DNA of 64,000 nt from Chloroflexota bacterium (GTDB taxonomy: Bacteria; Chloroflexota; Anaerolineae; UBA2200; JACIWT01). Location: assembly GCA_014360825.1 (NCBI GenBank), contig JACIWT010000002.1, positions 140,782 through 204,781 of the forward strand. The letters are read 5' to 3'. Shown here one piece after another: positions 29,434 through 43,535 of this stretch. The notes beneath the pieces were generated by a model that saw only the letters and a list, made by a program, of their open reading frames with translations, did not search any database and was not told the DNA's origin. The position numbers and the translations under genes are program-made. Every line of letters starts with the position of its first letter. Positions within the stretch are counted from its first letter, which is position 1.

Positions 29434-31130
<1,697 letters not shown>

Positions 31131-31141
<11 letters not shown>

Positions 31142-31430
31142 ACTGCCGGATCGCAAGGAACACCACGCGCGCCAGGCGTGGCGCGCCCTGGCTTACGCCA
31201 CCACGTTAGGATGGGTGTTGGCCCTTCCCATCTTCGGTGGCACGCTACTTGGTTACTGGCTGGATCACCGGCTGCATACAGGCATGACCATGACTCTGGG
31301 ATTGATGGCCTTGGGCGTTTTCATTGGCTTCTATAACCTTTATAACATCATGCAGCGCGAGGCGGATGCCGATAGAACGCCTTCGGGCTTGGATGAAGAA
31401 GAGGTAGAGGAAACAAAGCGGCGATTATGA
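31131..31430 (+). CDS. atpQ: N-type ATPase accessory protein AtpQ (AtpI-like)
   Basis: 99 residues, GTG start overlapping atpC by 11 bp. Two membrane helices (about 22-45 and 52-75) joined by LLGYWLDHRLHTG, the hallmark of the AtpI-like family. In N-type operons this gene sits between epsilon and atpR and is thought to help assemble the c-ring, possibly through Mg2+ handling. Charged C-terminal tail. Confidence 0.85.
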
Positions 31431-31708
31431 CTCGGATAGTCTGGCTAGGGGCAGGTTTGTTCATTGGGGCGATCAGCACCCTGTCTCTGCATTGGCAAAT
31501 CACCAACTTGCGACCCAATCAGCCACGGTCTGCCGCCGTATGGGTTGTCGGGGCTATGTTGTTGAGATTGGCAATGACTGCGGCGCTGCTGGGCTGGGCG
31601 CTTTCCAAAGGGATCATCCCGATGTTGGTCGCTGCTTGTGGCTGGACCTTGGGGCGACTGGCTATGATTGGTTGGGCAGAGTTCTCGAGATCTCGCAGGG
31701 GTACATAG
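31427..31708 (+). CDS. atpR: N-type ATPase subunit AtpR
   Basis: 93 residues with three membrane helices and arginines buried in or at the ends of helices (MLLRLAMTAALLGW, LGRLAMIGW). AtpR is found only in N-type ATPase operons; the arginines have been proposed to face the c-subunit glutamates during ring assembly. It overlaps the atpQ stop by 4 bp (ATGA). Position and topology, more than residue identity, support the call. Confidence 0.82.
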   Translation: MTRIVWLGAGLFIGAISTLSLHWQITNLRPNQPRSAAVWVVGAMLLRLAMTAALLGWALSKGIIPMLVAACGWTLGRLAMIGWAEFSRSRRGT

Positions 31709-31720
31709 AACGAGAGGAGA

Positions 31721-32446
31721 ATGATGGAGCCCGTTTTCACGCGCGTGGTTTTCACTATCCCGTTGTTCGGAGGCATCCCTGTGCGTGACACAGTGGTGAC
31801 CACTTGGATAATCATGGTCATGCTGAGCGGCCTGGCTTTTCTACTTGGTCGCCGCCGGCCATTTCTATTAGAGGTCGTTGTGGACCTCTTGCTTGATCTA
31901 ATTACCGGGATGATGGGCAGGCCGGCTGCTTCCTACCTGCCATTGCTGGGCACGCTGGCCATCTTCATCGCCACTGCCAACCTGATCGGCATCATACCCT
32001 CCATCCCGCTTCCTGGAGGCACCATATTTCCCATCGTTGCACCCACCCGTGACATAAACACTCCTTTGGCTCTGGCCCTCACCATCTTCTGCGCCGTCTA
32101 CTACTACGGATTTCGCACCCACGGGGTGTGTGGTTACGTGAAAAAACTTGCCTCTCCCGTCTTCATGCTGCCTTTGGAACTCATTAGCCAAGTGAGCCGT
32201 ACCCTCTCGCTGAGTCTACGCCTTTTCGGCAATGTCCTCAGCGGTGAGTTAATAGTGGCCGTTGTGGCCATGCTGGCTCCACTCATTGTACCGTTGCCCT
32301 TACAGGTTTTCACTATGATCACCGGCGTATTGCAATCCTATATTTTCACCACACTGGCCACCGTTTACATTGGCGCTGCAGTGGAAGTTGCAACGGCTCC
32401 CACTCACCGGGATAGCACAACAAACGAAACAAGCCACACTAACTAG
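31721..32446 (+). CDS. atpB: N-type ATPase subunit a
   Basis: 241 residues; tandem ATGs at 31721 and 31724, the second better spaced from GAGAGGAG. Five or six membrane helices. The essential stator arginine is in SRTLSLSLRLFGNVLSGE. LGTLAIFIATANLIGIIPSIPLPGG and the C-terminal QSYIFTTLATVYIG helix are typical of subunit a. It forms the ion half-channels beside the c-ring. Confidence 0.93.
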   Translation: MMEPVFTRVVFTIPLFGGIPVRDTVVTTWIIMVMLSGLAFLLGRRRPFLLEVVVDLLLDLITGMMGRPAASYLPLLGTLAIFIATANLIGIIPSIPLPGGTIFPIVAPTRDINTPLALALTIFCAVYYYGFRTHGVCGYVKKLASPVFMLPLELISQVSRTLSLSLRLFGNVLSGELIVAVVAMLAPLIVPLPLQVFTMITGVLQSYIFTTLATVYIGAAVEVATAPTHRDSTTNETSHTN

Positions 32447-32464
32447 AAAGGGAAGGTATGTAGC

Positions 32465-32734
32465 ATGGACTCCGGACTGCTAATCACTCTGGTCACTATT
32501 ATCGTCACTGCCCTTGCCATCAGTATCGGCACTATCGTGCCCTCATTGATGGAAGGTTGGGCGGTCGTCAAAGCCTTGGATGGGATCGCCCGACAACCCG
32601 AAGCAGCAGATAGCATTCGTGCCACTTTGTTTGTCTCCATAGCGCTCCTGGAGTCAGTGGCCATTTATGTGCTGTTGATCTGCCTGATCCTGCTCTTCGC
32701 CAACCCATTGGTTGGCCGCGTTCTTGGCTCATAG
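32465..32734 (+). CDS. atpE: N-type ATPase subunit c with Na+-binding signature
   Basis: 89 residues, two helices joined by the polar loop ARQPEA. The ion site resembles that of Na+-translocating rings: Glu30 in helix 1 (Gln32 in Ilyobacter), Glu63 and Ser64 in helix 2 (Glu65, Ser66) and Tyr68 (Tyr70). The only clear difference is Val65 in place of the water-binding Thr. Two carboxylates per hairpin (Glu30 and Glu63) are characteristic of N-type c subunits. Na+ is therefore the likely coupling ion; H+ remains possible at low Na+ or low pH. Confidence 0.92.
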   Translation: MDSGLLITLVTIIVTALAISIGTIVPSLMEGWAVVKALDGIARQPEAADSIRATLFVSIALLESVAIYVLLICLILLFANPLVGRVLGS

Positions 32735-32742
32735 GAGCACCG

Positions 32743-33528
32743 ATGCTGGAACTTGATTGGGCTACGTTGATTTTCCAAGTCATCAATTTCCTGATCCTGA
32801 TAGCGCTGCTGTACCGGTTCCTATTCCGACCAGGCTTGCAAGCAGTGGAACACCGTCGCCGACAGGTACAGGAGATGATCGAGCGAGCGCAGAAGGAGCA
32901 CGAGGAGGCAGAAGCGTTACGTCAGGAACTGGAAGCGCGTTTGGCCCAAGTGGAGGAGGAGACAGAGATCTTGCTTTCGAAAGTTCGAGCCACTGCCTCC
33001 GAGGAAGCACAGGCTATCCTGGAGGCAGCCCGGCAAGAAGCAGAGGAGATTCTGGCGGAGGCACGTGCGGAGGCTCAGCGGGAGCGCGATCACGCCCTCG
33101 GCCAATACGCCGAGGAGATTGTAAACACCGTGTTGTACGTGAGTGGGCGGTTGTTGGGGCCCGTAACACCGCCTGAGGTGCACGATGCTTTGGTTGCCCG
33201 ACTCAATGAGCACGTCTATCAAATGGGCCAGCATTCTGAACAGATCCAGATGTTCCGCCAGACGCTAGGGGATCGGAACCTGACTGCCCAGGTCTCCACT
33301 GCTCGCCCACTCACCATGGAACAGCAAGGACAACTGGCACGCACTCTGACCGCCCTCGCTGACCAGCACGTGGATCTGGAGATCACCGATGACCCAACTC
33401 TCATCGCCGGACTGCGCGTTCGCCTGGGCGATACTATCATTGACACAAGTCTGGCTGGCCAATTGGAGCAACTCAAGGAGCGTGTGCTCTCGACATTGGA
33501 GGAAAGGTTGACTCGTGTCCGAAGTTGA
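32743..33528 (+). CDS. atpF: N-type ATPase b-delta fusion subunit
   Basis: 261 residues, much longer than a normal b subunit. One N-terminal membrane helix (about 8-30) is followed by a long coiled coil (about 35-130) rich in Glu, Ala, Gln and Arg, and then by a C-terminal domain resembling the delta (OSCP) C-terminus (DDPTLIAGLRVRLGDTIID, SLAGQLEQLKERVL). No separate atpH gene exists in the operon, so this protein supplies both the peripheral stalk and the alpha-binding cap. It overlaps atpA by 14 bp. Confidence 0.9.
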   Translation: MLELDWATLIFQVINFLILIALLYRFLFRPGLQAVEHRRRQVQEMIERAQKEHEEAEALRQELEARLAQVEEETEILLSKVRATASEEAQAILEAARQEAEEILAEARAEAQRERDHALGQYAEEIVNTVLYVSGRLLGPVTPPEVHDALVARLNEHVYQMGQHSEQIQMFRQTLGDRNLTAQVSTARPLTMEQQGQLARTLTALADQHVDLEITDDPTLIAGLRVRLGDTIIDTSLAGQLEQLKERVLSTLEERLTRVRS

Positions 33529-35065
33529 CGCAGCGAAACGAAGCCCCCTCAATGTATTGGGCATCGCAGATCTGATTCGAACAGGGGCTGCCGCATACGA
33601 GTATCGCCCCCGGGTCTTGGAGGTTGGGACGGTGCTGCGCGTGGGCAATGGCGTGGCTACTCTATCGGGGTTACTCAGTGCTCGCACTGAAGATGTGGTT
33701 GTATTCCCTACCGGTGTGCAGGGCATGGTCCTCAATCTAAACCGCCTTCAGACGGACGTGATACTGCTTGGGCCGGATCAGGGCATCCAAGGGGGGGACA
33801 TTGTTCTCAACACCGGCCGTCGCCTACGTGTCCCTGTGGGGTGGGGATTCTTGGGACGGGTTGTAGATCCCCTTGGCAAGCCGCTGGATGGCCGAGGTCC
33901 CATTGCTCCTTCAGAATGGTCACCTTTAGAAAAGGAGGCGCCGGGCATCATTGCTCGCCAGCCTGTGAACACGCCTTTACAGACGGGCATTAAGATCGTG
34001 GATGCGCTGGTGCCCCTCGGTAGGGGCCAGAGGGAGTTAATCATCGGAGATCGGCAGACCGGCAAAACTGCTCTCGCCCTAGATGCTATAATCAACCAGC
34101 GTCGAGGCGATGTTCTATGCGTATATGTGGCTATTGCGCAGAAAAAGTCATCGGTGCATTCGGCAATACAGGTGCTCCGCCAATATGGAGCGATGGATCA
34201 TAGTATTGTAGTGGTCGCTAACCCCGACGATCCACCTGCACTACGCTACTTAGCCCCGTACGCGGGTTGCAGCATGGCGGAATTTTTTATGTACGAGGGT
34301 CGTGACGCGCTCATTGTATACGACGATTTGACGAAGCATGCTGATTCCTATCGTGAACTGAGTTTACTGCTGCGTAGGCCGCCAGGCCGTGAGGCTTACC
34401 CTGGAGACATCTTCTATCTGCACGCCCGGTTATTGGAACGCGCCTGTAAACTCAGCGAGGAACACGGTGGTGGTTCTCTGACCGCGCTCCCAATTGTAGA
34501 AACACGCCGCGGCCATATTGCTGCTTACATCCCCACCAATCTGATTTCCATCTCGGATGGTCAGATCTATTTGGATGCTGACCGGTTCAATCGCGGCTTT
34601 AAGCCGGCAGTTCACGAGGGACTTTCAGTCTCCCGCGTTGGTGGTGCGGCACAAACGCACGCTATGCGCGCCGTTACTGCTCACTTGAGACTGGACCTAT
34701 CCCAGTTTGAAGAAGTAGCCCACTTCGCCCGGCTGGGCACCGAAGTAGACGCCGCTACGCGACGCCAGATCGCTCGTGGGCAACGCCTGCAGGCCGCGCT
34801 GAAGCAACGCCAATACGCACCTCTCTCAGTAGGTGAACAGGTTATACAACTATATGCTGCTACCTCCGGTTATTTGGATGATCTCTCAGTGGACGAGGTA
34901 CCAGCCTATCTGGAGGGGTTACCCGACTTCATAGAGCGAGGGTACTCTCATGTGTACTATCCTTTGGAACGCACTAAAGAACTCGATGCGGAGATAAAAG
35001 AGGCCCTCGAAGAGGGCTTAGAAGCCTACCATGCGTATTGGAAAGAGAGGGCATTAGGGTCATGA
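33515..35065 (+). CDS. atpA: N-type ATPase subunit alpha
   Basis: 516 residues, GTG start inside the end of atpF. Non-catalytic nucleotide-binding alpha subunit: P-loop GDRQTGKTA, the YVAIAQKKS segment, DALIVYDDLTKHADSYRELSLLLRRPPGREAYPGD split over the Walker B region, and the arginine finger region (VGGAAQTHAMR). Its last bases overlap the next small gene by 4 bp (ATGA). Confidence 0.95.
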   Translation: MSEVDAAKRSPLNVLGIADLIRTGAAAYEYRPRVLEVGTVLRVGNGVATLSGLLSARTEDVVVFPTGVQGMVLNLNRLQTDVILLGPDQGIQGGDIVLNTGRRLRVPVGWGFLGRVVDPLGKPLDGRGPIAPSEWSPLEKEAPGIIARQPVNTPLQTGIKIVDALVPLGRGQRELIIGDRQTGKTALALDAIINQRRGDVLCVYVAIAQKKSSVHSAIQVLRQYGAMDHSIVVVANPDDPPALRYLAPYAGCSMAEFFMYEGRDALIVYDDLTKHADSYRELSLLLRRPPGREAYPGDIFYLHARLLERACKLSEEHGGGSLTALPIVETRRGHIAAYIPTNLISISDGQIYLDADRFNRGFKPAVHEGLSVSRVGGAAQTHAMRAVTAHLRLDLSQFEEVAHFARLGTEVDAATRRQIARGQRLQAALKQRQYAPLSVGEQVIQLYAATSGYLDDLSVDEVPAYLEGLPDFIERGYSHVYYPLERTKELDAEIKEALEEGLEAYHAYWKERALGS

Positions 35066-35415
35066 AGATGATAATGGCTGTGGTACAGCGGGCAGAGGCC
35101 AGACAGTTGCTCGATGCACTGGTTACCGCTGGTTATGCTGTTACCTATTCCGAGAGTCGGGGGGGCCTCTTGCATCAGGCCAGCGACACACTTTTCATTG
35201 GTGTGGAAGACGAGGCTGTGGACTCGGTATTGCAGATCATTCGCGAAAACTGTCATGCCTGTGTCGCTCTCCGCGAGACTACGGCTGCTGAGGCCTCCGA
35301 GCAGTTGAATGAAAGTACCACGACGAGCCCTCTGGCTCCACCCCGCCATTCTGAAATCACCGTTGGTGGAGCAGTGGTCTTTGTCTGGCCTATTGAACGC
35401 TTCGAGAAATTCTAA
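35062..35415 (+). CDS. PII-like protein of the cyclic-di-AMP receptor family (DarA/PstA type)
   Basis: 117 residues. The ATG at 35062 overlaps the atpA stop (ATGA), so the gene is translationally coupled; a GTG-type start further upstream is not needed. It starts with KMIMAVVQRAEARQLLDAL and ends in EITVGGAVVFVWPIERFEKF, both hallmark strands of the CdAMP_rec (PF06153) family of trimeric PII-like proteins. The GG of the ligand loop (SRGGLL) and the following FIGV are kept, but the Arg and Asn that contact c-di-AMP in Staphylococcus PstA are replaced (AVT, ASDT). It may therefore bind c-di-AMP weakly or bind a different nucleotide. It lies inside the ATPase operon between alpha and gamma, where no such gene is usual. 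Confidence 0.88.
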   Translation: MKMIMAVVQRAEARQLLDALVTAGYAVTYSESRGGLLHQASDTLFIGVEDEAVDSVLQIIRENCHACVALRETTAAEASEQLNESTTTSPLAPPRHSEITVGGAVVFVWPIERFEKF

Positions 35416-35425
35416 TCTCTGATCC

Positions 35426-36352
35426 ATGGAAGATATCGAGCAGGTTGAAGCCCGGCTGCGCAATATCCGTAGCATCACGCCTATCTTGAGCGCCCTCCGC
35501 ACCATTGCCCTTGGTGGCTGGCGGGTGGCACTTGCCAGACTGAATGCGGTGCGAGCCTATCAGGAACAACTGACCGATATATTGTACCTGATATTGCCCC
35601 GCTTGTCCGGGACTCGCTTGCACGGTCAGCCAACTAAGGCAACTGTCGCACGTCGAGGCCTGTTGGTCATTGGCAGTGAACGGGGACTGTGTGGTTTATT
35701 CACGACTTCCGTTGTCGCTGTCGCGGAGGCGGAGTTGGCTCGGTGGCGAGCCATGGGAATTGAGGGCGAACTCATGGTCTTAGGAGAGAGGGCCAGGCGC
35801 GAATTCCGTCGCCGCAACTTATTTCCTGTCTGGGAAGCCAGGTTGCCTGTGACAGGCGTGCCCTCCATCTGCCTGGCTGCTGAATTGGTGGCCAAGACGT
35901 TACCGCGTTTCAATAGAGGGGAACTGGAGGCAGTTGCGGTTGCCTACAATCACTATCTCGGTCCAGCGCGTTACGAATCGCGGGTACTGGAACTTCTGCC
36001 TCTGGTCTGGCCCCACCGTGCTGTAAGGAGACCGCCCTGGCCCCCGCCTATTATAGACACAGACCCCTACAGTCTGTATCAACAGATCACAGAGCAATTA
36101 GTGTTGATCGCCTTTTTCCGCGTGCTTCTGGAATCAGCCGCCGCGGAACAATCGGCTCGCTTTCAATTGATGGAAGGTGCCAGCCAGAATAGTCATCGCT
36201 TGATTGATGAACTCACGCTGGCCTATCATATGGCTCGGCAGCAGAGAATTACCATGGAGATGCTCGACTTGGCTGTGGGAGCAGGGCTGGTGGGCCAAAG
36301 CCAGACTCAGTGGTCAGAGATGTCTTCCACCGATATGCCCGCTGATTTGTAA
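35426..36352 (+). CDS. atpG: N-type ATPase subunit gamma
   Basis: 308 residues. Central rotor subunit: N-terminal helix (IEQVEARLRNIRSITPILSALRTIALGGW), a Rossmann-like middle domain with LLVIGSERGLCGLFT, and a C-terminal helix (EGASQNSHRLIDELTLAYHMARQQRITMEMLDL split around the conserved MARQQRIT). The sequence is diverged from ordinary gamma subunits, as expected for N-type enzymes. It is the last gene of the operon. Confidence 0.92.
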   Translation: MEDIEQVEARLRNIRSITPILSALRTIALGGWRVALARLNAVRAYQEQLTDILYLILPRLSGTRLHGQPTKATVARRGLLVIGSERGLCGLFTTSVVAVAEAELARWRAMGIEGELMVLGERARREFRRRNLFPVWEARLPVTGVPSICLAAELVAKTLPRFNRGELEAVAVAYNHYLGPARYESRVLELLPLVWPHRAVRRPPWPPPIIDTDPYSLYQQITEQLVLIAFFRVLLESAAAEQSARFQLMEGASQNSHRLIDELTLAYHMARQQRITMEMLDLAVGAGLVGQSQTQWSEMSSTDMPADL

Positions 36353-38252: not shown

Positions 38253-39890
38253 TCATGGGGCAGCCACAAGGCGGTATACAATGACCGCCCATTTTCCCCC
38301 TGAGAATTTCCGCACGAATTCCAGTTCCGGTGGTGGATTCGTTGTGTCCGCGAGGAAACTCAATTGTGGACGTATCACTGTTACCTCACGCTCGTCCACT
38401 ACCCAATATTGGACGCGGTTTTTGCGGGCATAGTGGATGAGGCGCTCGTAGGGTTCATTGGCCGATGGAATCCAGGGCCTTTCAGCATAAAATGGCACCT
38501 GGGTATCACGGGTCATGAGCAGCGTCTCCGGTGGAGTGTTCGCCTTAAGCCATAGTCCTGCCTCTCGTGGCGCAGGGTTCATGTCAGCCAGACCATTGGC
38601 CACAACAAACGGTTGCAAAGCGAGGAAGAGCGCGCAGAGTGCGAAGGCTGGCAGGCGTGTTCCCAAGGCGAGCCAGGCTGGGTGGGGCTCGTGCCCCATG
38701 AGGTTGGAAACCGTCTCGCGCCACCAATGACCCAATTCCGTGATCCCTTCCGCCACCCAGAGGAGAAGCACTGGGAAAAGGGGGGCGAAGTATCGTAACT
38801 CGATGTGGAAGGGCAGGAAGGATGCCAAAGGCAGGCAAAAAGCCAGAAGCATCGCCATACTCCAGACCCGTCTCTGATCCCACTTTCGAGCGAACCACGC
38901 CAGAGCGACTAACCCTAGCAGATAAAAAGGAAACGCCTGGTGAGAGAAGAGCGATTGCTCTAATGCGTTGAAGTTATGCCAGGTGCGATATAGGAATAGG
39001 CGAGGGTCTTGGCGGATGTAGTCGAGCAAACTGTACTTGAAACGATCTGGAGAGAACCAGATGATATGCTCGCCGGCCTCGTCAAGCCGCGCCAACTCGC
39101 GGTCGTAAAGCACGGGGTCGCCTATTACTACCCCTAACCCTGCTGCGTAGGTCACGCCTAATTTGCCACTGAGCAGAACGCGCCCGGTGTATCGGTATAG
39201 GTACGCTATGTATGGAGAGATCACCATAATGAAAGCCAATGCAGCCAACGCCAGATTGGTTATTGTCCTGCGGTCTCGCATTGTTCTGGTAGCCAAGCGG
39301 TAAAGTGTTACAATAGCCCACAAGAACGCCATGTGAAGCAGCGCCTCGGGTTTGGTAAGGTAGGCCAAGCCCAGCAATACACCCGCCCCTAGATGCCACC
39401 TGGCCAGGTTGGTATCCAAAGCGCGAAACCAGGCGTAGAGAGCGGTAAGGAGGAGCACGACGTACATGGGCTCAATCATCGTCCCCCAGAAGAGCACCCC
39501 TGCAGACAAAGGGGGAAAGACGCCCACTAGCGCTGCTGTGATGAGGGCAGCTGTCGTTCCGCTTGTCCGTCGGGCGACCAAATACGTGCACAGGGGCAAC
39601 AGGGTGCCGAAGATCAGATAGCAGAGGTCGCTTGCCCGTTTGGCGTCACCGAGCACCAGGCCCAACGTTCCAGTGACAATGGGGAAGAGGGGTGCGTAAT
39701 GCAATTCGGGCACTTGGCCTACGGTGAGCCCCCGGCCAGAAAATAGGTTGATGCCCATCAGGAGGTAATCCGGTTCGTCCCAACGCACGATGCGATCCAC
39801 GCGCAGCAAGAGCAGCCGCAGGACGAAGGAAACCAAAATAATGGCATATATCGTGAATTTTGTGGCGCGCTGCTTTCCTACGTTCTCCAT
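38253..39890 (-). CDS. GT39-like membrane glycosyltransferase (3)
   Basis: 545 residues from the ATG at 39890, 1 bp after the upstream gene's stop; a GTG at 39905 would overlap it by 14 bp. About eleven membrane helices. The first outside loop holds the acidic DEP motif (DRIVRWDEPDYLLMG), the catalytic pattern of protein-mannosyl/ArnT-like GT-C enzymes that use polyprenyl-phosphate sugars. The C-terminal soluble domain contains TQVPFYAERPWIPS and YWVVDEREVTVIRPQ, which is also found in the paralogue at 41530-43158. Acceptor unknown. Confidence 0.78.
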   Translation of the reverse strand: MENVGKQRATKFTIYAIILVSFVLRLLLLRVDRIVRWDEPDYLLMGINLFSGRGLTVGQVPELHYAPLFPIVTGTLGLVLGDAKRASDLCYLIFGTLLPLCTYLVARRTSGTTAALITAALVGVFPPLSAGVLFWGTMIEPMYVVLLLTALYAWFRALDTNLARWHLGAGVLLGLAYLTKPEALLHMAFLWAIVTLYRLATRTMRDRRTITNLALAALAFIMVISPYIAYLYRYTGRVLLSGKLGVTYAAGLGVVIGDPVLYDRELARLDEAGEHIIWFSPDRFKYSLLDYIRQDPRLFLYRTWHNFNALEQSLFSHQAFPFYLLGLVALAWFARKWDQRRVWSMAMLLAFCLPLASFLPFHIELRYFAPLFPVLLLWVAEGITELGHWWRETVSNLMGHEPHPAWLALGTRLPAFALCALFLALQPFVVANGLADMNPAPREAGLWLKANTPPETLLMTRDTQVPFYAERPWIPSANEPYERLIHYARKNRVQYWVVDEREVTVIRPQLSFLADTTNPPPELEFVRKFSGGKWAVIVYRLVAAP

Positions 39891-39891
39891 A

Positions 39892-41529
39892 TTACTCTTG
39901 CTCACTCAGCCGGGCACGCAACGTGGCCCCACTCGTACTAGCCACAAGTTGGGAGTGAGCCAGGATATACGCTTGCGTGTCGCTACTCAATTGCCGTGCC
40001 GTTCGGGCATCGAGTACAACGTAATCCGATGACTGGAACAAGGCCAATATCGCATCCTGAGCCGGTTGCCGGTGGAAAACGTCTATGGCATTGGCCTCGT
40101 TGTCTTCGTTCGTTCTGCCCGAGAGCGCAAACAGCGGTGTGTTCGCCATCCCCAAGTTAATATATAACATTTCGCCATAACTGTCCACGAAGAAACCACC
40201 ATCGCGCAACCCCGCCAACGGTCGTGACGACAGGAAAGTGTAGTTGGGCTCGAATACGAGCACGCTGGCTCCTTCTGGCACCTGGTCGCGCAACACGGCA
40301 GCCATCTCCAAGTGCACAGGTTTGATCTGACACAGAGCATCTCGAGTGGCCTTGGCTTGTCGGACTAGGTTACCCGCGCCGAGTACACACACCAGGGCGA
40401 TCAGGCCAACTTGGAAATAAGGTAGTGGCATCTTCGCTATCTTCAGATTTGCGAACCGGTCGCTCAGCAGCCCTCCAGCCCACACCGCGAGCGGAAAAGC
40501 CAACTGGGAGAAATAAGTCGCCCAGTACGTTCTGGAAACGAGATTGAGCAACAAAGCCGTTACGCCCCAGCCGATGATCACAAGCCACTGTTCACGCTGC
40601 CCGTCCTGCCGTAGCGTCAAAATGGCGAAGACCAAACCCAATAATCCCAGGCGTACAGTGAGCCAACTCCAGGTGTAATTCCATATCTCTATCAACCGGG
40701 CGATGATACCAACCGTGCCATCAGGAGGGCGCAACAGGTGAAAAAGGTACATTTGTTTGAGGTATTGTTCCGGGCACGTGATCAGGAAATAGCCTGCCAA
40801 TAGCAGGTAGGTAACTGCAACAGTCGCAGCGAAGATGAGCAAGGCGCGAAATCTTCGTTGCAGTAGTACATGCAACACAATCAATACTGGAACTATTAGC
40901 GCTGTTCCCTTCGACAAGAGCGCTAAGGTAGAGCACACGCCCGCCGCTGCCAGCGGTAGGCGTTTTTCGCTTTCTATGGCTCCCAGATAGGCGAAGAGGG
41001 CCAAGAGGGTGAACAGATTACTGGGTGCCTCGAGCATGGCACGGCGGTCCTGAGCGACCACGATGCCATCCACCGCCACCAGAAATGCAGCCAGTAGCCC
41101 CGCCCACCGCCCGCCGACTTTGCGCCCGATGAGATACGTTACCAGCACTGAAACGGTGCCCATCGCCACGCACAGATAACGGACCGCCATGAACCCGCTC
41201 GGGCTGCCCCACGGTGTGTAAGTCAGGCGCAAGATCGCAGCGAAAAGGTGGAGTGCAACAGGAGGGATAACCGCGAAGAAATCCCGGTAAGGCAGGTAGC
41301 CTTGGAGCATCAACTGGGCGCTGGTAAGATATGCCCCCTCGTCAGCGTCTTGGGCATAACGAAGTCCTTGTTCCGGAGGCACAAGCCGATACAGGCGCAG
41401 GCTTAGCGCCAGAAGGAGCACGATGATCAATGTTGCGATTTCTGTAGCGGCTGCCCTTTGCCGAAGGTTCATCATCCCCCTTGAGATACTGGCCAATGCC
41501 GTGAAACGGGCATCACCACGCGTGGGCAC
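39892..41529 (-). CDS. GT39-like membrane glycosyltransferase (2)
   Basis: 545 residues; the GTG at 41529 directly follows the upstream stop (TGAGTG), while an ATG at 41475 is also possible. About eleven membrane helices; first loop acid motif DADEGAYLTSAQLMLQG, followed by YRDFFAVIPPVALHL, characteristic of the ArnT/PMT-2 group. The soluble C-terminus ends in VVLDARTARQLSS. It is part of a four-gene - strand operon of surface-glycan genes. Confidence 0.78.
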   Translation of the reverse strand: MPTRGDARFTALASISRGMMNLRQRAAATEIATLIIVLLLALSLRLYRLVPPEQGLRYAQDADEGAYLTSAQLMLQGYLPYRDFFAVIPPVALHLFAAILRLTYTPWGSPSGFMAVRYLCVAMGTVSVLVTYLIGRKVGGRWAGLLAAFLVAVDGIVVAQDRRAMLEAPSNLFTLLALFAYLGAIESEKRLPLAAAGVCSTLALLSKGTALIVPVLIVLHVLLQRRFRALLIFAATVAVTYLLLAGYFLITCPEQYLKQMYLFHLLRPPDGTVGIIARLIEIWNYTWSWLTVRLGLLGLVFAILTLRQDGQREQWLVIIGWGVTALLLNLVSRTYWATYFSQLAFPLAVWAGGLLSDRFANLKIAKMPLPYFQVGLIALVCVLGAGNLVRQAKATRDALCQIKPVHLEMAAVLRDQVPEGASVLVFEPNYTFLSSRPLAGLRDGGFFVDSYGEMLYINLGMANTPLFALSGRTNEDNEANAIDVFHRQPAQDAILALFQSSDYVVLDARTARQLSSDTQAYILAHSQLVASTSGATLRARLSEQE

Positions 41530-43158
41530 TCACAACATTACCTCATACACCACCATGCGCTCGCCTTGGAGCGTTTCAGAGTAGATCAGCCGTAGCCAGG
41601 CAGGCACTGCCTCGCCGGAAATGAGCCCCTCAAATTGCGGTCGCAATCTCACTTCTCGTTCATCCAAAACCCAATAGCGGACGTTTTTAGCCTGCAAGTA
41701 ATCGGTGATCTCCCCGACCTCTGCGTTGGGCGTGGCAGCCCACTTCGTGTCTGCATGGAACGCAATGGCCGGATACCGTGACATAATCACCGTATCCGGC
41801 GTGACCTTATCTCGCAGCCACAGACCTATCTCCTTGTGCGCCGGACGCCAAGAACCGGTGCTGGTCTTGTTTAGCATGTTCGGCTGCATAGCCAGACAGT
41901 AAACCAAGACAAACAGCAATGGGATCAGGTTCAGGAAAGATCGGATTACCTTAGGCATCGCACCAGGAAGGCGCAATTGAGTCGCGGTGTCGGATAGCCA
42001 TCTCCCTAATTCCCACAAGCCCGCTCCCAACCATACCAACAAGCCTGGCAGTACTGCCGCGATGTAGCGCTCCTGGACGAAGAACAGCACGAATCCCAAC
42101 ACTGGAGCAATGCTTGCCACCATGAACAACTGGCGCTGTAAGTAGAGCCTGTCCCATGGCTTCTGGAACAGTGCCAGGCCGACTGGTATCAGGAAGAAAT
42201 AAGGGAAGAGCCGCCAGGTGAATAGCAGTTCGATAAATGCCCAACTGTTGCGCAGGATCAGTTTCACAAAAGCGGTTCGAGTGATGGTTGCTCCGCCCAC
42301 CTCCACCAGGTAACTCTCAGGCGAGAAGAAGTAGACCTCTTTTCCTGTGCTATCCAACCGCCAGGTGGACTTATCAAAAGCAGCGGTATTGCCGTACGCC
42401 AAGCCGATGCCAGTCTCAAACGTTACCCCTGCCTTCTCGGTGATCATCCAATGACCGGTGTGGTATGCCGTGTAGGCGGCATAAGGTAGCACGAAGAGGG
42501 CCGCGCTGGCCGCAAACAGCACCAACCCTGCTAACACAGGGCGGTGGAAGAGTCGCCGTGAGAACAATTTCATGGCCGACAAGAACAAGAACAAAACCAC
42601 GATGTATCCGATAGCCTCTGGGCGCACGAGATAGGCCGCTCCGAAGAGCGCGCCTGCCAGGGCATAGGCCCAGCGGCGCTCGTCCTCCAGGGCCACCAAA
42701 CAAGCGTAGAGGCCACTGTACACGAGGGTGTAGTATGGTGCTTCCGTCAATGTGCCCCAGCGCAGGATCGCGCCCGTCAAGGCAGGATAGAGAGCAGCGA
42801 GCAGTCCTGCGAAGGTAGCAGGGGGACCGTAGATACGCCGAGTGATCAGATAAATCGGCAGGGGGAGCAAGGAACCGAAGACCAGGTAGCAAAGATCCGA
42901 ACTCAGTTCCATATTGTGTGTGAGCGGGTAAATAATACCTGTGAGAAAGGGATAGCCAGGGGTATGATGCACATCAGGGTGACCCGTGAAACTATAACCC
43001 TGGCCAGTGATCCAATTCCTTCCTAACCAGAGGTAGAAAGGCTCGTCACCCCACACTACACGGTCAACTTGGAGTAGTGCCAGCCGCGCCAAAAACGCGA
43101 TGAGGATGAGCAAAGCGATGGTGAAACGCTCTTGTCGGGACAAGGATGGCTGCGTCAT
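41530..43158 (-). CDS. GT39-like membrane glycosyltransferase (1)
   Basis: 542 residues from the ATG at 43158. About eleven membrane helices and the first loop motif DRVVWGDEPFYLWLGRNW, closely matching that of the gene at 38253-39890; the C-terminal YWVLDEREVRLRPQF is also shared, so these two are paralogues. Likely transfers a sugar from a polyprenyl-phosphate donor to a surface glycan or protein. It follows the DUF2304 gene with no gap. Confidence 0.78.
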   Translation of the reverse strand: MTQPSLSRQERFTIALLILIAFLARLALLQVDRVVWGDEPFYLWLGRNWITGQGYSFTGHPDVHHTPGYPFLTGIIYPLTHNMELSSDLCYLVFGSLLPLPIYLITRRIYGPPATFAGLLAALYPALTGAILRWGTLTEAPYYTLVYSGLYACLVALEDERRWAYALAGALFGAAYLVRPEAIGYIVVLFLFLSAMKLFSRRLFHRPVLAGLVLFAASAALFVLPYAAYTAYHTGHWMITEKAGVTFETGIGLAYGNTAAFDKSTWRLDSTGKEVYFFSPESYLVEVGGATITRTAFVKLILRNSWAFIELLFTWRLFPYFFLIPVGLALFQKPWDRLYLQRQLFMVASIAPVLGFVLFFVQERYIAAVLPGLLVWLGAGLWELGRWLSDTATQLRLPGAMPKVIRSFLNLIPLLFVLVYCLAMQPNMLNKTSTGSWRPAHKEIGLWLRDKVTPDTVIMSRYPAIAFHADTKWAATPNAEVGEITDYLQAKNVRYWVLDEREVRLRPQFEGLISGEAVPAWLRLIYSETLQGERMVVYEVML

Positions 43159-43163
43159 ATTCA

Positions 43164-43535
43164 CTATTTCTCTGCCTCGTTCAGGTTGTTTTCTAATTCC
43201 CTCACCCGCCGTTCCAGCAAAGCGATCTCTTGGGTTAGCACCTTGATACGGTCGCCAAAATCGGAGATGGTGGTAGAGAACTGGAACAGGATCAGCACAA
43301 AAAGAAGGAAGGCGATCGTGAAGAACAGAGCGGGTGGGTAATCAATGCCCAAGGCATAGGCGATGCGATCGAGTGAGTTTATTACAATGGGCGAAATGGC
43401 AAACAATGCCGCAATTGCCAGCCAGAGGAGAGCATACTGTTCACGCAGTTTCTTGGTGCGAACCAGGTTAATCACCGTGACGAGAACAGCCAGTCCCAGG
43501 AGGCTGAGGAAAACCTGAGCACGTGGTTGCATCAT
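43164..43535 (-). CDS. DUF2304 membrane protein
   Basis: 123 residues from the ATG at 43535 (GGGGGA upstream). Three membrane helices, the conserved LREQYALLWL segment of DUF2304 and a C-terminal coiled coil (LTQEIALLERRVRELENNL). DUF2304 proteins accompany polyprenyl-phosphate glycosyltransferases in glycan clusters; the role is unknown but the context here agrees. Confidence 0.8.
   Translation of the reverse strand: MMQPRAQVFLSLLGLAVLVTVINLVRTKKLREQYALLWLAIAALFAISPIVINSLDRIAYALGIDYPPALFFTIAFLLFVLILFQFSTTISDFGDRIKVLTQEIALLERRVRELENNLNEAEK

What the first reader, a model, noticed from the sequence alone, without database searches (positions are those of the whole stretch)
32465..32734. c subunit carries a Na+-type ion site with two glutamates
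Seen: Glu30, Glu63, Ser64 and Tyr68 line up with Gln32, Glu65, Ser66 and Tyr70 of the Ilyobacter Na+ ring. Known: these residues coordinate Na+. Inferred: the ATPase is a Na+ pump. Val65 in place of the water-binding Thr and the extra carboxylate are points to test.
Basis: partly seen in the sequence, partly recalled or inferred. Interest (0 to 1): 0.5.

Follow-up and report, generated by a model that had tools for sequence, protein, structure and literature searches.

The report
Two-glutamate ATPase rotor, nucleotide-sensor gene alongside
The rotor protein of this bacterium's ATP-driven ion pump keeps most of a known sodium-type binding site but has lost one water-holding residue, so sodium pumping cannot be assumed, and the same operon carries a small nucleotide-sensor-like gene that is kept in relatives and may control the pump.

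Summary
The 89-aa ORF at 32465-32734 (+) is a rotary-ATPase c subunit. E30/E63/S64/Y68 align without gaps with E32/E65/S66/Y70 of a two-glutamate Na+ ring; V65 replaces T67. The second glutamate is a described motif (PMC3692424).

"Na+ pump" does not follow. The closest experimental analogue, the N-type ring of B. pseudomallei, has the same layout (Glu, Glu, hydroxyl, hydrophobe, Tyr) and is predominantly H+-selective (PMC5376962). In 37 distinct related operons position 65 is T 30, A 3, G 2, S 1, V 1; of 396 class genomes only this one matches a Ser/Thr64-Val65 pattern. I favour H+ or mixed coupling (about 0.6).

The more surprising thing lies next door. This N-type-like operon (Chloroflexota, Anaerolineae) carries, between atpA and atpG and overlapping atpA by ATGA, a PII-like gene of the c-di-AMP-receptor family PF06153. 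Copies in this position form one clade (35 of 35 rows) and have lost Asn41 in 33 of 33 distinct sequences, while 49 of 49 copies elsewhere keep it. It looks like a dedicated nucleotide-responsive regulator of the ATPase with an altered pocket. My literature searches found no description of it.

The parts
29440..30846 (+). atpD, F1 beta subunit (first gene of the operon)
   Evidence: TIGR01039 721.8 bits over cut-off; TIGR03305 (alternate F1F0 beta) 609.4, below its cut-off 752
30839..31141 (+). atpC, epsilon; only the N-terminal sandwich domain (100 aa), no C-terminal helical domain matched
   Evidence: PF02823 51.5 bits, residues 6-81; sequence printed
31131..31430 (+). atpQ-like membrane protein
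   Evidence: PF09527 56.5 bits, cut-off 26.6; TIGR02230 40.1, below 46.7
31427..31708 (+). atpR-like membrane protein
   Evidence: PF12966 'N-ATPase, AtpR subunit' 25.3 bits, just under cut-off 26; TIGR03165 23.2, below 55.5
31721..32446 (+). atpB, a subunit; Arg167 in SLRLFGN
   Evidence: PF00119 141 bits; sequence
32465..32734 (+). atpE, c subunit with ion site E30 / L61 / E63 / S64 / V65 / Y68
   Evidence: PF00137 41.6 bits; alignment to 3zk1
32743..33528 (+). atpF, b subunit with a C-terminal delta/OSCP-like domain (261 aa); no separate atpH in the operon
   Evidence: PF00430 residues 8-132 and PF00213 residues 179-247
33515..35065 (+). atpA, F1 alpha subunit
   Evidence: NF009884 685 bits over cut-off
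35062..35415 (+). PII-like gene of the c-di-AMP-receptor family, ATGA overlap with the atpA stop; residues 36 and 41 are Leu and Ser instead of Phe and Asn
   Evidence: PF06153 83.2 bits, cut-off 27; overlap read; best PDB match 4rww, PstA with c-di-AMP
35426..36352 (+). atpG, gamma subunit (last gene)
   Evidence: PF00231 160.6 bits

Best explanation
The finding is the c subunit of an N-type-like rotary ATPase from the Anaerolineae (Chloroflexota). Its ring binds the coupling ion with the known two-carboxylate site: Glu63 is the working carboxylate, Glu30 stays protonated and donates a hydrogen bond, Ser64 and Tyr68 complete the network. Compared with most of its relatives this lineage has Val65 in place of the water-binding Thr, which should weaken the Na+ state. 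The ring is therefore most likely H+-selective, or mixed with H+ dominating, at ordinary Na+/H+ ratios. The operon also encodes a PII-like protein (trimeric if like PstA), overlapping atpA and preceding atpG, which most likely binds an adenine nucleotide between its subunits and regulates the ATPase. Shown: sequence, operon, conservation, clade, altered pocket residues. Inferred: ion preference, ligand, and that the PII-like protein acts on the ATPase.
For: Ungapped alignment to a two-Glu Na+ ring with V65 at T67. Crystal geometry for the Thr67-water contact and arguments for a protonated second Glu (PMC3692424). N-type ring with hydroxyl+hydrophobe measured as predominantly H+ (PMC5376962). 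In 17 other c subunits from this class, apparently ordinary F-type, position 65 is I 10, V 6, L 1. Ser/Thr64-Val65 pattern in 1 of 396 class genomes, the window's own. Of seven genomes where I read two c subunits, five pair an E30/T65 ring with a Q30/L65 ring. Both membrane pyrophosphatases have Lys in GNT(T/M)KA, which I recall as the K+-independent H+-pumping class; no NQR/Rnf hit. PII-like gene: between atpA and atpG in 37 of 80 distinct loci, 24 without it there, 19 undecided; one clade, 35 of 35 rows, 100/97; N41 in 0 of 33 distinct linked copies vs 49 of 49 others, F36 in 1 of 33 vs 39 of 49; diadenylate cyclase and a canonical receptor elsewhere in the genome.
Against: Four of the five side chains of the Na+ site are kept, and Ser64 is the Na+ ring's Ser, whereas the H+ ring 2wie has Ala there and Leu next and 16 of the 17 ordinary-looking c subunits have Ala there; so this site is intermediate. 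Most relatives keep Thr65, so the family as a whole may well be Na+-coupled, and an N-type ATPase of Aphanothece halophytica is reported as Na+-coupled (PMC5376962 introduction). NCBIfam labels both pyrophosphatases 'sodium-translocating' (by recall that name also covers H+ pumps). No model of the ring, energy calculation or measurement was made. Operon position and conservation do not prove that the PII-like protein touches the ATPase: 24 of 80 loci lack it between atpA and atpG, among them a near relative of the window whose family member lies after atpG (L070/L208). The PII-like tree rests on 109 columns and its bootstrap had not settled.
Confidence: 0.6

Rival explanations
1. The ATPase is Na+-coupled: the backbone carbonyl (Ala64 O in the F. 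nucleatum ring) still holds the water, and the four other ligands suffice when Na+ greatly exceeds H+.
For: E30/E63/S64/Y68 kept; relatives mostly E30/S64/T65; Ala64 O also contacts the water in the F. nucleatum ring.
Against: Val65 removes the side-chain contact; B. pseudomallei with Met there is predominantly H+.
Confidence: 0.3
2. The PII-like protein is a true c-di-AMP receptor that ties the ATPase to osmotic/K+ signalling.
For: Family PF06153 over cut-off; T28, G35 and L37 kept in 33 of 33 distinct linked copies and F99 in 31 of 33; genome has a DAC cyclase; family members placed after atpG of other N-like operons keep F36 and N41 in 3 of 3 distinct sequences.
Against: N41 is replaced in 33 of 33 and F36 in 32 of 33 linked copies; in LmPstA N41A weakened binding to about 140 uM and F36A to 7 uM (PMC4475381).
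Confidence: 0.25
3. The PII-like gene is an operon passenger (for example an assembly or expression neighbour) with no direct action on the ATPase.
For: No interaction data; related operons without it exist (24 of 80 distinct loci run atpA-atpG with nothing of this family between).
Against: Kept in place in many families and in one genome of another class (L251), with its own residue signature and, by the tree, one origin.
Confidence: 0.25

Closest known systems
F. nucleatum two-carboxylate c11 ring (PMC3692424; 3zk1 by recall)
   Same: Both glutamates, Ser and Tyr at the same columns, ungapped
   Different: Thr67, which contacts the Na+-bound water, is Val65 here; the operon here is N-type-like
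B. pseudomallei N-type ATPase, c17 ring, predominantly H+ (PMC5376962)
   Same: Operon starting with atpD-atpC, then atpQ-atpR; Glu30, second Glu, hydroxyl, hydrophobe, Tyr in the site
   Different: Ser64/Val65 here vs Thr62/Met63 there; PII-like gene in this operon; ring size here unknown
PstA/DarA c-di-AMP receptors (4rww, 4d3h, 4rle; PMC4475381)
   Same: PII-like fold, full-length match, GG-L turn, Thr28, GGA and the Phe99 column
   Different: Asn41 and Phe36 replaced; linked to a rotary ATPase operon; NCBIfam DarA cut-off not reached (86.9 vs 140)
SbtB-SbtA and GlnK-AmtB (PMC10117731 passages)
   Same: Small PII-type protein acting on a membrane transporter under control of adenine nucleotides; SbtB is coexpressed with SbtA
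   Different: Target here would be a rotary ATPase; interaction not shown

Membership tests
N-type ATPase (N-ATPase / alternate F1F0) | Operon order atpD-C-Q-R-B-E-F-A-G | tested here: met
   Order read, with one extra gene between atpA and atpG; the Figure 1 legend of PMC5376962 gives atpD, atpC first, followed by atpQ and atpR; the full order is recalled
N-type ATPase (N-ATPase / alternate F1F0) | No atpH; long C-terminal extension in atpF; atpR present (PMC4154653 passages) | tested here: inconclusive
   No atpH in the operon, atpF 261 aa with an OSCP-like end: met. AtpR model 25.3 bits vs cut-off 26: just missed
N-type ATPase (N-ATPase / alternate F1F0) | Curated NCBIfam alternate-F1F0 cut-offs (TIGR03305, 03324, 03306, 03322, 03321, 03323, 03166) | tested here: not met
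   7 of 7 matched but below cut-off, e.g. beta 609 vs 752, c 83 vs 131; hence 'N-type-like', not a member by that yardstick
N-type ATPase (N-ATPase / alternate F1F0) | Present in addition to another rotary ATPase | tested here: met
   The only other PF00137 hit in the genome is a V/A-type K subunit
Na+-binding c ring | Gln/Glu32, Glu65, Ser/Thr66, Tyr70 | tested here: met
Na+-binding c ring | Thr67 oxygen contacting the water ligand | tested here: not met
   Val65
Na+-binding c ring | Na+ protects the carboxylate from DCCD/NCD-4 | not testable with these tools
   Needs protein
DarA/PstA c-di-AMP receptor | Family PF06153 and PII-like fold | tested here: met
   83.2 bits; AlphaFold model pLDDT 82.5, best PDB matches PstA/DarA
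DarA/PstA c-di-AMP receptor | Phe36 and Asn41 of the binding site; NCBIfam NF058593 cut-off | tested here: not met
   Leu36, Ser41 in the window copy; 86.9 vs 140 bits
DarA/PstA c-di-AMP receptor | Binds c-di-AMP | not testable with these tools
   Needs protein

The most novel reading that the evidence does not exclude
A Chloroflexota lineage of N-type-like rotary ATPases carries its own PII-like nucleotide sensor as a regulatory partner. It arose from the c-di-AMP receptor family, changed its ligand pocket (towards ATP/ADP/AMP or another nucleotide), and switches the ATPase on or off. It would be the first PII-family control of a rotary ATPase that my searches know of, and a candidate target for the DarA/PstA family.
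Probability: 0.4. Interest if true: 0.8.

Novelty: new variant of a known kind. Interest (0 to 1): 0.5.

Why it matters
The ion site sets up a natural experiment on Na+/H+ selectivity: related rings of this kind differ at position 65 (T, V, G, A, S, C), and some genomes hold both an E/T ring and a Q/L ring. The PII-like gene matters more. The targets of PstA were unknown in PMC4475381 (2015, section read), the start of the PMC7900238 abstract (2021, search listing) still calls DarA a protein of unknown function, and no PII-type control of a rotary ATPase turned up in my searches. A signature-bearing copy inside an ATPase operon names a target that can be tested directly.

Tried and rejected
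The extra carboxylate as something new: rejected, it is the two-carboxylate motif of PMC3692424 and is present in 35 of the 37 distinct operons with the PII-like gene. Na+ energetics from the rest of the genome: no NQR/Rnf; two membrane pyrophosphatases, called sodium-translocating by NCBIfam but with the Lys signature that I recall for H+ pumps; not decisive. Truncated epsilon replaced by the PII-like protein: epsilon is short in the window and in some relatives, but reaches 120-142 aa in others that have the gene, so I dropped it. Ring-size prediction, a ring model and energy calculations were not done.

Limits of the counts. One search left out L047 and the loci L081-L127 except L114 (nearly all Prochlorococcus/Synechococcus-type); 93 loci gave 80 distinct, mostly N-like operons but with a few that may not be (e.g. 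L061, L068, L069). All were found with seeds close to the window's c subunit or PII-like protein. 19 of the 80 could not be scored (contig end, or atpA/atpG not recognised). In some searches the first comparison set is biased to top Pfam scores (29 distinct of 30), so 20 lower-scoring copies were added. No atp gene was found beside any of these 50 copies, but the flanks searched were at most about 1.5 kb for 30 of them and 0.3 kb for 20. The PII-like tree has 35 linked rows (33 distinct); L251-L254 came later and are not in it. The alpha-subunit tree used 74 of 80 representatives and a quick search, drawn with a midpoint root. The class samples (298 and 396 genomes) and the phylum sample (400) are drawn from larger groups. 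Of seven genomes where I read two c subunits, two do not fit the E/T plus Q/L pairing: G224 has two T65 rings, and G030's second is an ordinary-looking c with Ile30/Ala64/Val65.

Full report
What is there. The ORF 32465-32734 (+) is an 89-residue c subunit. It is the sixth gene of a ten-gene cluster, 29440-36352, all on +: atpD, atpC, atpQ-like, atpR-like, atpB, atpE, atpF with a delta-like end, atpA, a PF06153 gene, atpG. That is the N-type operon order with one addition. The seven NCBIfam 'alternate F1F0' models for core subunits all match but stay below their cut-offs, while beta and alpha exceed ordinary F-type cut-offs; I therefore call it N-type-like. The genome (2.89 Mb, 64 contigs) has one other PF00137 hit, a V/A-type K subunit. 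The nearest named relatives are Anaerolineae/Chloroflexota MAGs; the window's own record is not named.

The ion site. One search aligns E30, E63, S64, V65, Y68 without gaps to E32, E65, S66, T67, Y70 of 3zk1; the 1yce row pairs the same columns. In the F. nucleatum ring Na+ is held by Glu32, Val63 O, Glu65, Ser66 and a water that contacts Thr67 and Ala64 O; the second Glu stays protonated and is worth about a Gln (PMC3692424, sections 7, 8 and 16 read, other passages by find). For the B. pseudomallei N-type ring, Glu30/Glu61/Thr62/Met63/Tyr66, 15 mM Na+, Li+ or Cs+ left 40, 55 and 44% of NCD-4 labelling and pH 9 left 1%, whereas 15 mM NaCl leaves 1% in the Ilyobacter ring; it was judged predominantly H+-selective, against the sequence prediction (PMC5376962, sections 3, 5, 6 and 8 read). 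The window ring has the same pattern of hydroxyl then hydrophobe. In the nearest solved ring by sequence, 2wie, these two residues are Ala-Leu; in 17 other c subunits of the class, apparently ordinary F-type, they are Ala in 16 and Ser in 1, then I 10, V 6, L 1. So Ser64 is Na+-like and Val65 is H+-like: the site is intermediate. I put H+ or H+-dominated mixed coupling at 0.6, Na+ at 0.3, the rest undecided.

How unusual is Val65. In the seven genomes of the same order position 65 of this ring is V (window), T (3), G (2), A (1). Over 37 distinct operons with the PII-like gene: T 30, A 3, G 2, S 1, V 1; residue 30 is E 35, Q 2; residue 64 is S or T in 37. A DNA pattern for a Ser/Thr-type residue 64 followed by Val65 and by IY...FANP is found in 1 of 396 class genomes, the window's own; the pattern admits a few other residues at 64 and 66 and misses other variants, among them the ordinary Ala64 rings. 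On the alpha-subunit tree the window branches near the base of the group, closest to rows with C65 and T65, on an open fork, so T to V on the window's branch is the simplest reading, not a proof.

Two kinds of ring in one cell. Of seven genomes where I read two c subunits, five (G008, G027, G090, G242, G262) have an E30/T65 ring and a Q30/S64/L65 ring; G224 has two T65 rings and G030 pairs an E30/T65 ring with an ordinary-looking one. The five look like a split between a Na+-type and an H+-type machine; that is an inference from residues alone.

The PII-like gene. ATG at 35062 overlaps the atpA stop as ATGA. The protein matches PF06153 (83.2 bits, cut-off 27) and PstA/DarA structures over its full length (8e-16). 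The AlphaFold model (pLDDT 82.5; about 72 in residues 31-40 and 52-68 in 71-100) has PstA with c-di-AMP as best PDB match. The gene sits between atpA and atpG in 37 of 80 distinct loci; 24 have nothing of this family between them (three of these have a member after atpG), and 19 could not be scored. One of the 37 is from another class (L251). In a search of 400 phylum genomes with the profile of these copies, eight places stand apart at 105 bits or more (the next is 86.8), and all eight lie between atpA and atpG (and the window). The 35 linked rows of 89 form one side of a branch (100/97, all 200 bootstrap trees; 109 columns, bootstrap not settled, and the tool warns of long branches meeting). 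On the alpha tree the label needs two changes.

Its pocket. With LmPstA numbering, Asn41 is present in 0 of 33 distinct linked copies (Q 24, S 5, Y 2, K 1, E 1) and 49 of 49 others; Phe36 in 1 of 33 vs 39 of 49; Gly47 in 2 of 33 vs 49 of 49; Thr28 in 33 of 33 and 49 of 49. In LmPstA Thr28 and Asn41 bind the ribose and Phe36 stacks on the second adenine; F36A and N41A bind at 7 and about 140 uM (PMC4475381, passages and section 22). That paper equates the first nucleotide's site with the ATP site of PII. Here Thr28 and Phe99 of that first site are kept but Asn41 is lost and Gly47 is usually Ala, and the second site has lost Phe36. So the pocket is changed in both halves, least in the part shared with PII. 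SbtB, a PII-like partner of a transporter, binds several adenine nucleotides (PMC10117731, passages). I therefore favour an adenine-nucleotide sensor for the ATPase; c-di-AMP is possible. Three distinct family members that follow atpG in other N-like operons keep Phe36 and Asn41. The window genome also has a canonical copy and a diadenylate cyclase elsewhere.

Literature. Searches combining c-di-AMP or cyclic di-AMP with ATP synthase, N-ATPase, F1Fo, PstA, DarA or PII-like, PII-like with rotary ATPase and atp operon, and Anaerolineae or Chloroflexi with N-ATPase or cyclic di-AMP receptor listed no paper on such a link. Searches showed 20 of 23, 10 of 23 and 10 of 16 papers, and I judged from the listings; the library lacks most subscription journals. 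The original N-ATPase survey was not read; I know it through PMC5376962 and PMC4154653 (passages).

Verdict. Observation confirmed; Na+ pump only partly supported; the ion site is a known type with one lineage-specific change; the PII-like gene is the part that deserves an experiment.

Noticed in passing
window 35062-35415 (+): PF06153 PII-like gene between atpA and atpG, conserved in position in many relatives and forming its own clade with a changed c-di-AMP pocket.
   Followed up: yes
L045, L046, L225-L228: Second N-like operon type in Anaerolineae with Q30/S64/L65 c subunits; in five genomes it was read beside the E30/T65 type.
   Followed up: partly
L226, L228, L208/L070: PF06153 genes after atpG that keep Phe36 and Asn41 (3 of 3 distinct), a second kind of association with ATPase operons.
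   Followed up: partly
window 30839-31141 (+): Epsilon subunit shows no C-terminal helical domain; short epsilons recur in some same-order relatives but not in all operons with the PII-like gene.
   Followed up: partly
L229 1390-3627, L230 1465-3441 (own genome, C6 and C20): Two membrane pyrophosphatases with GNTTKA / GNTMKA, a Lys signature recalled for K+-independent H+ pumps although NCBIfam names them sodium-translocating.
   Followed up: partly
window 38253-43164 (-): Three consecutive membrane proteins of 544-550 aa that look alike (glycosyltransferase-like by eye); no search made.
   Followed up: no
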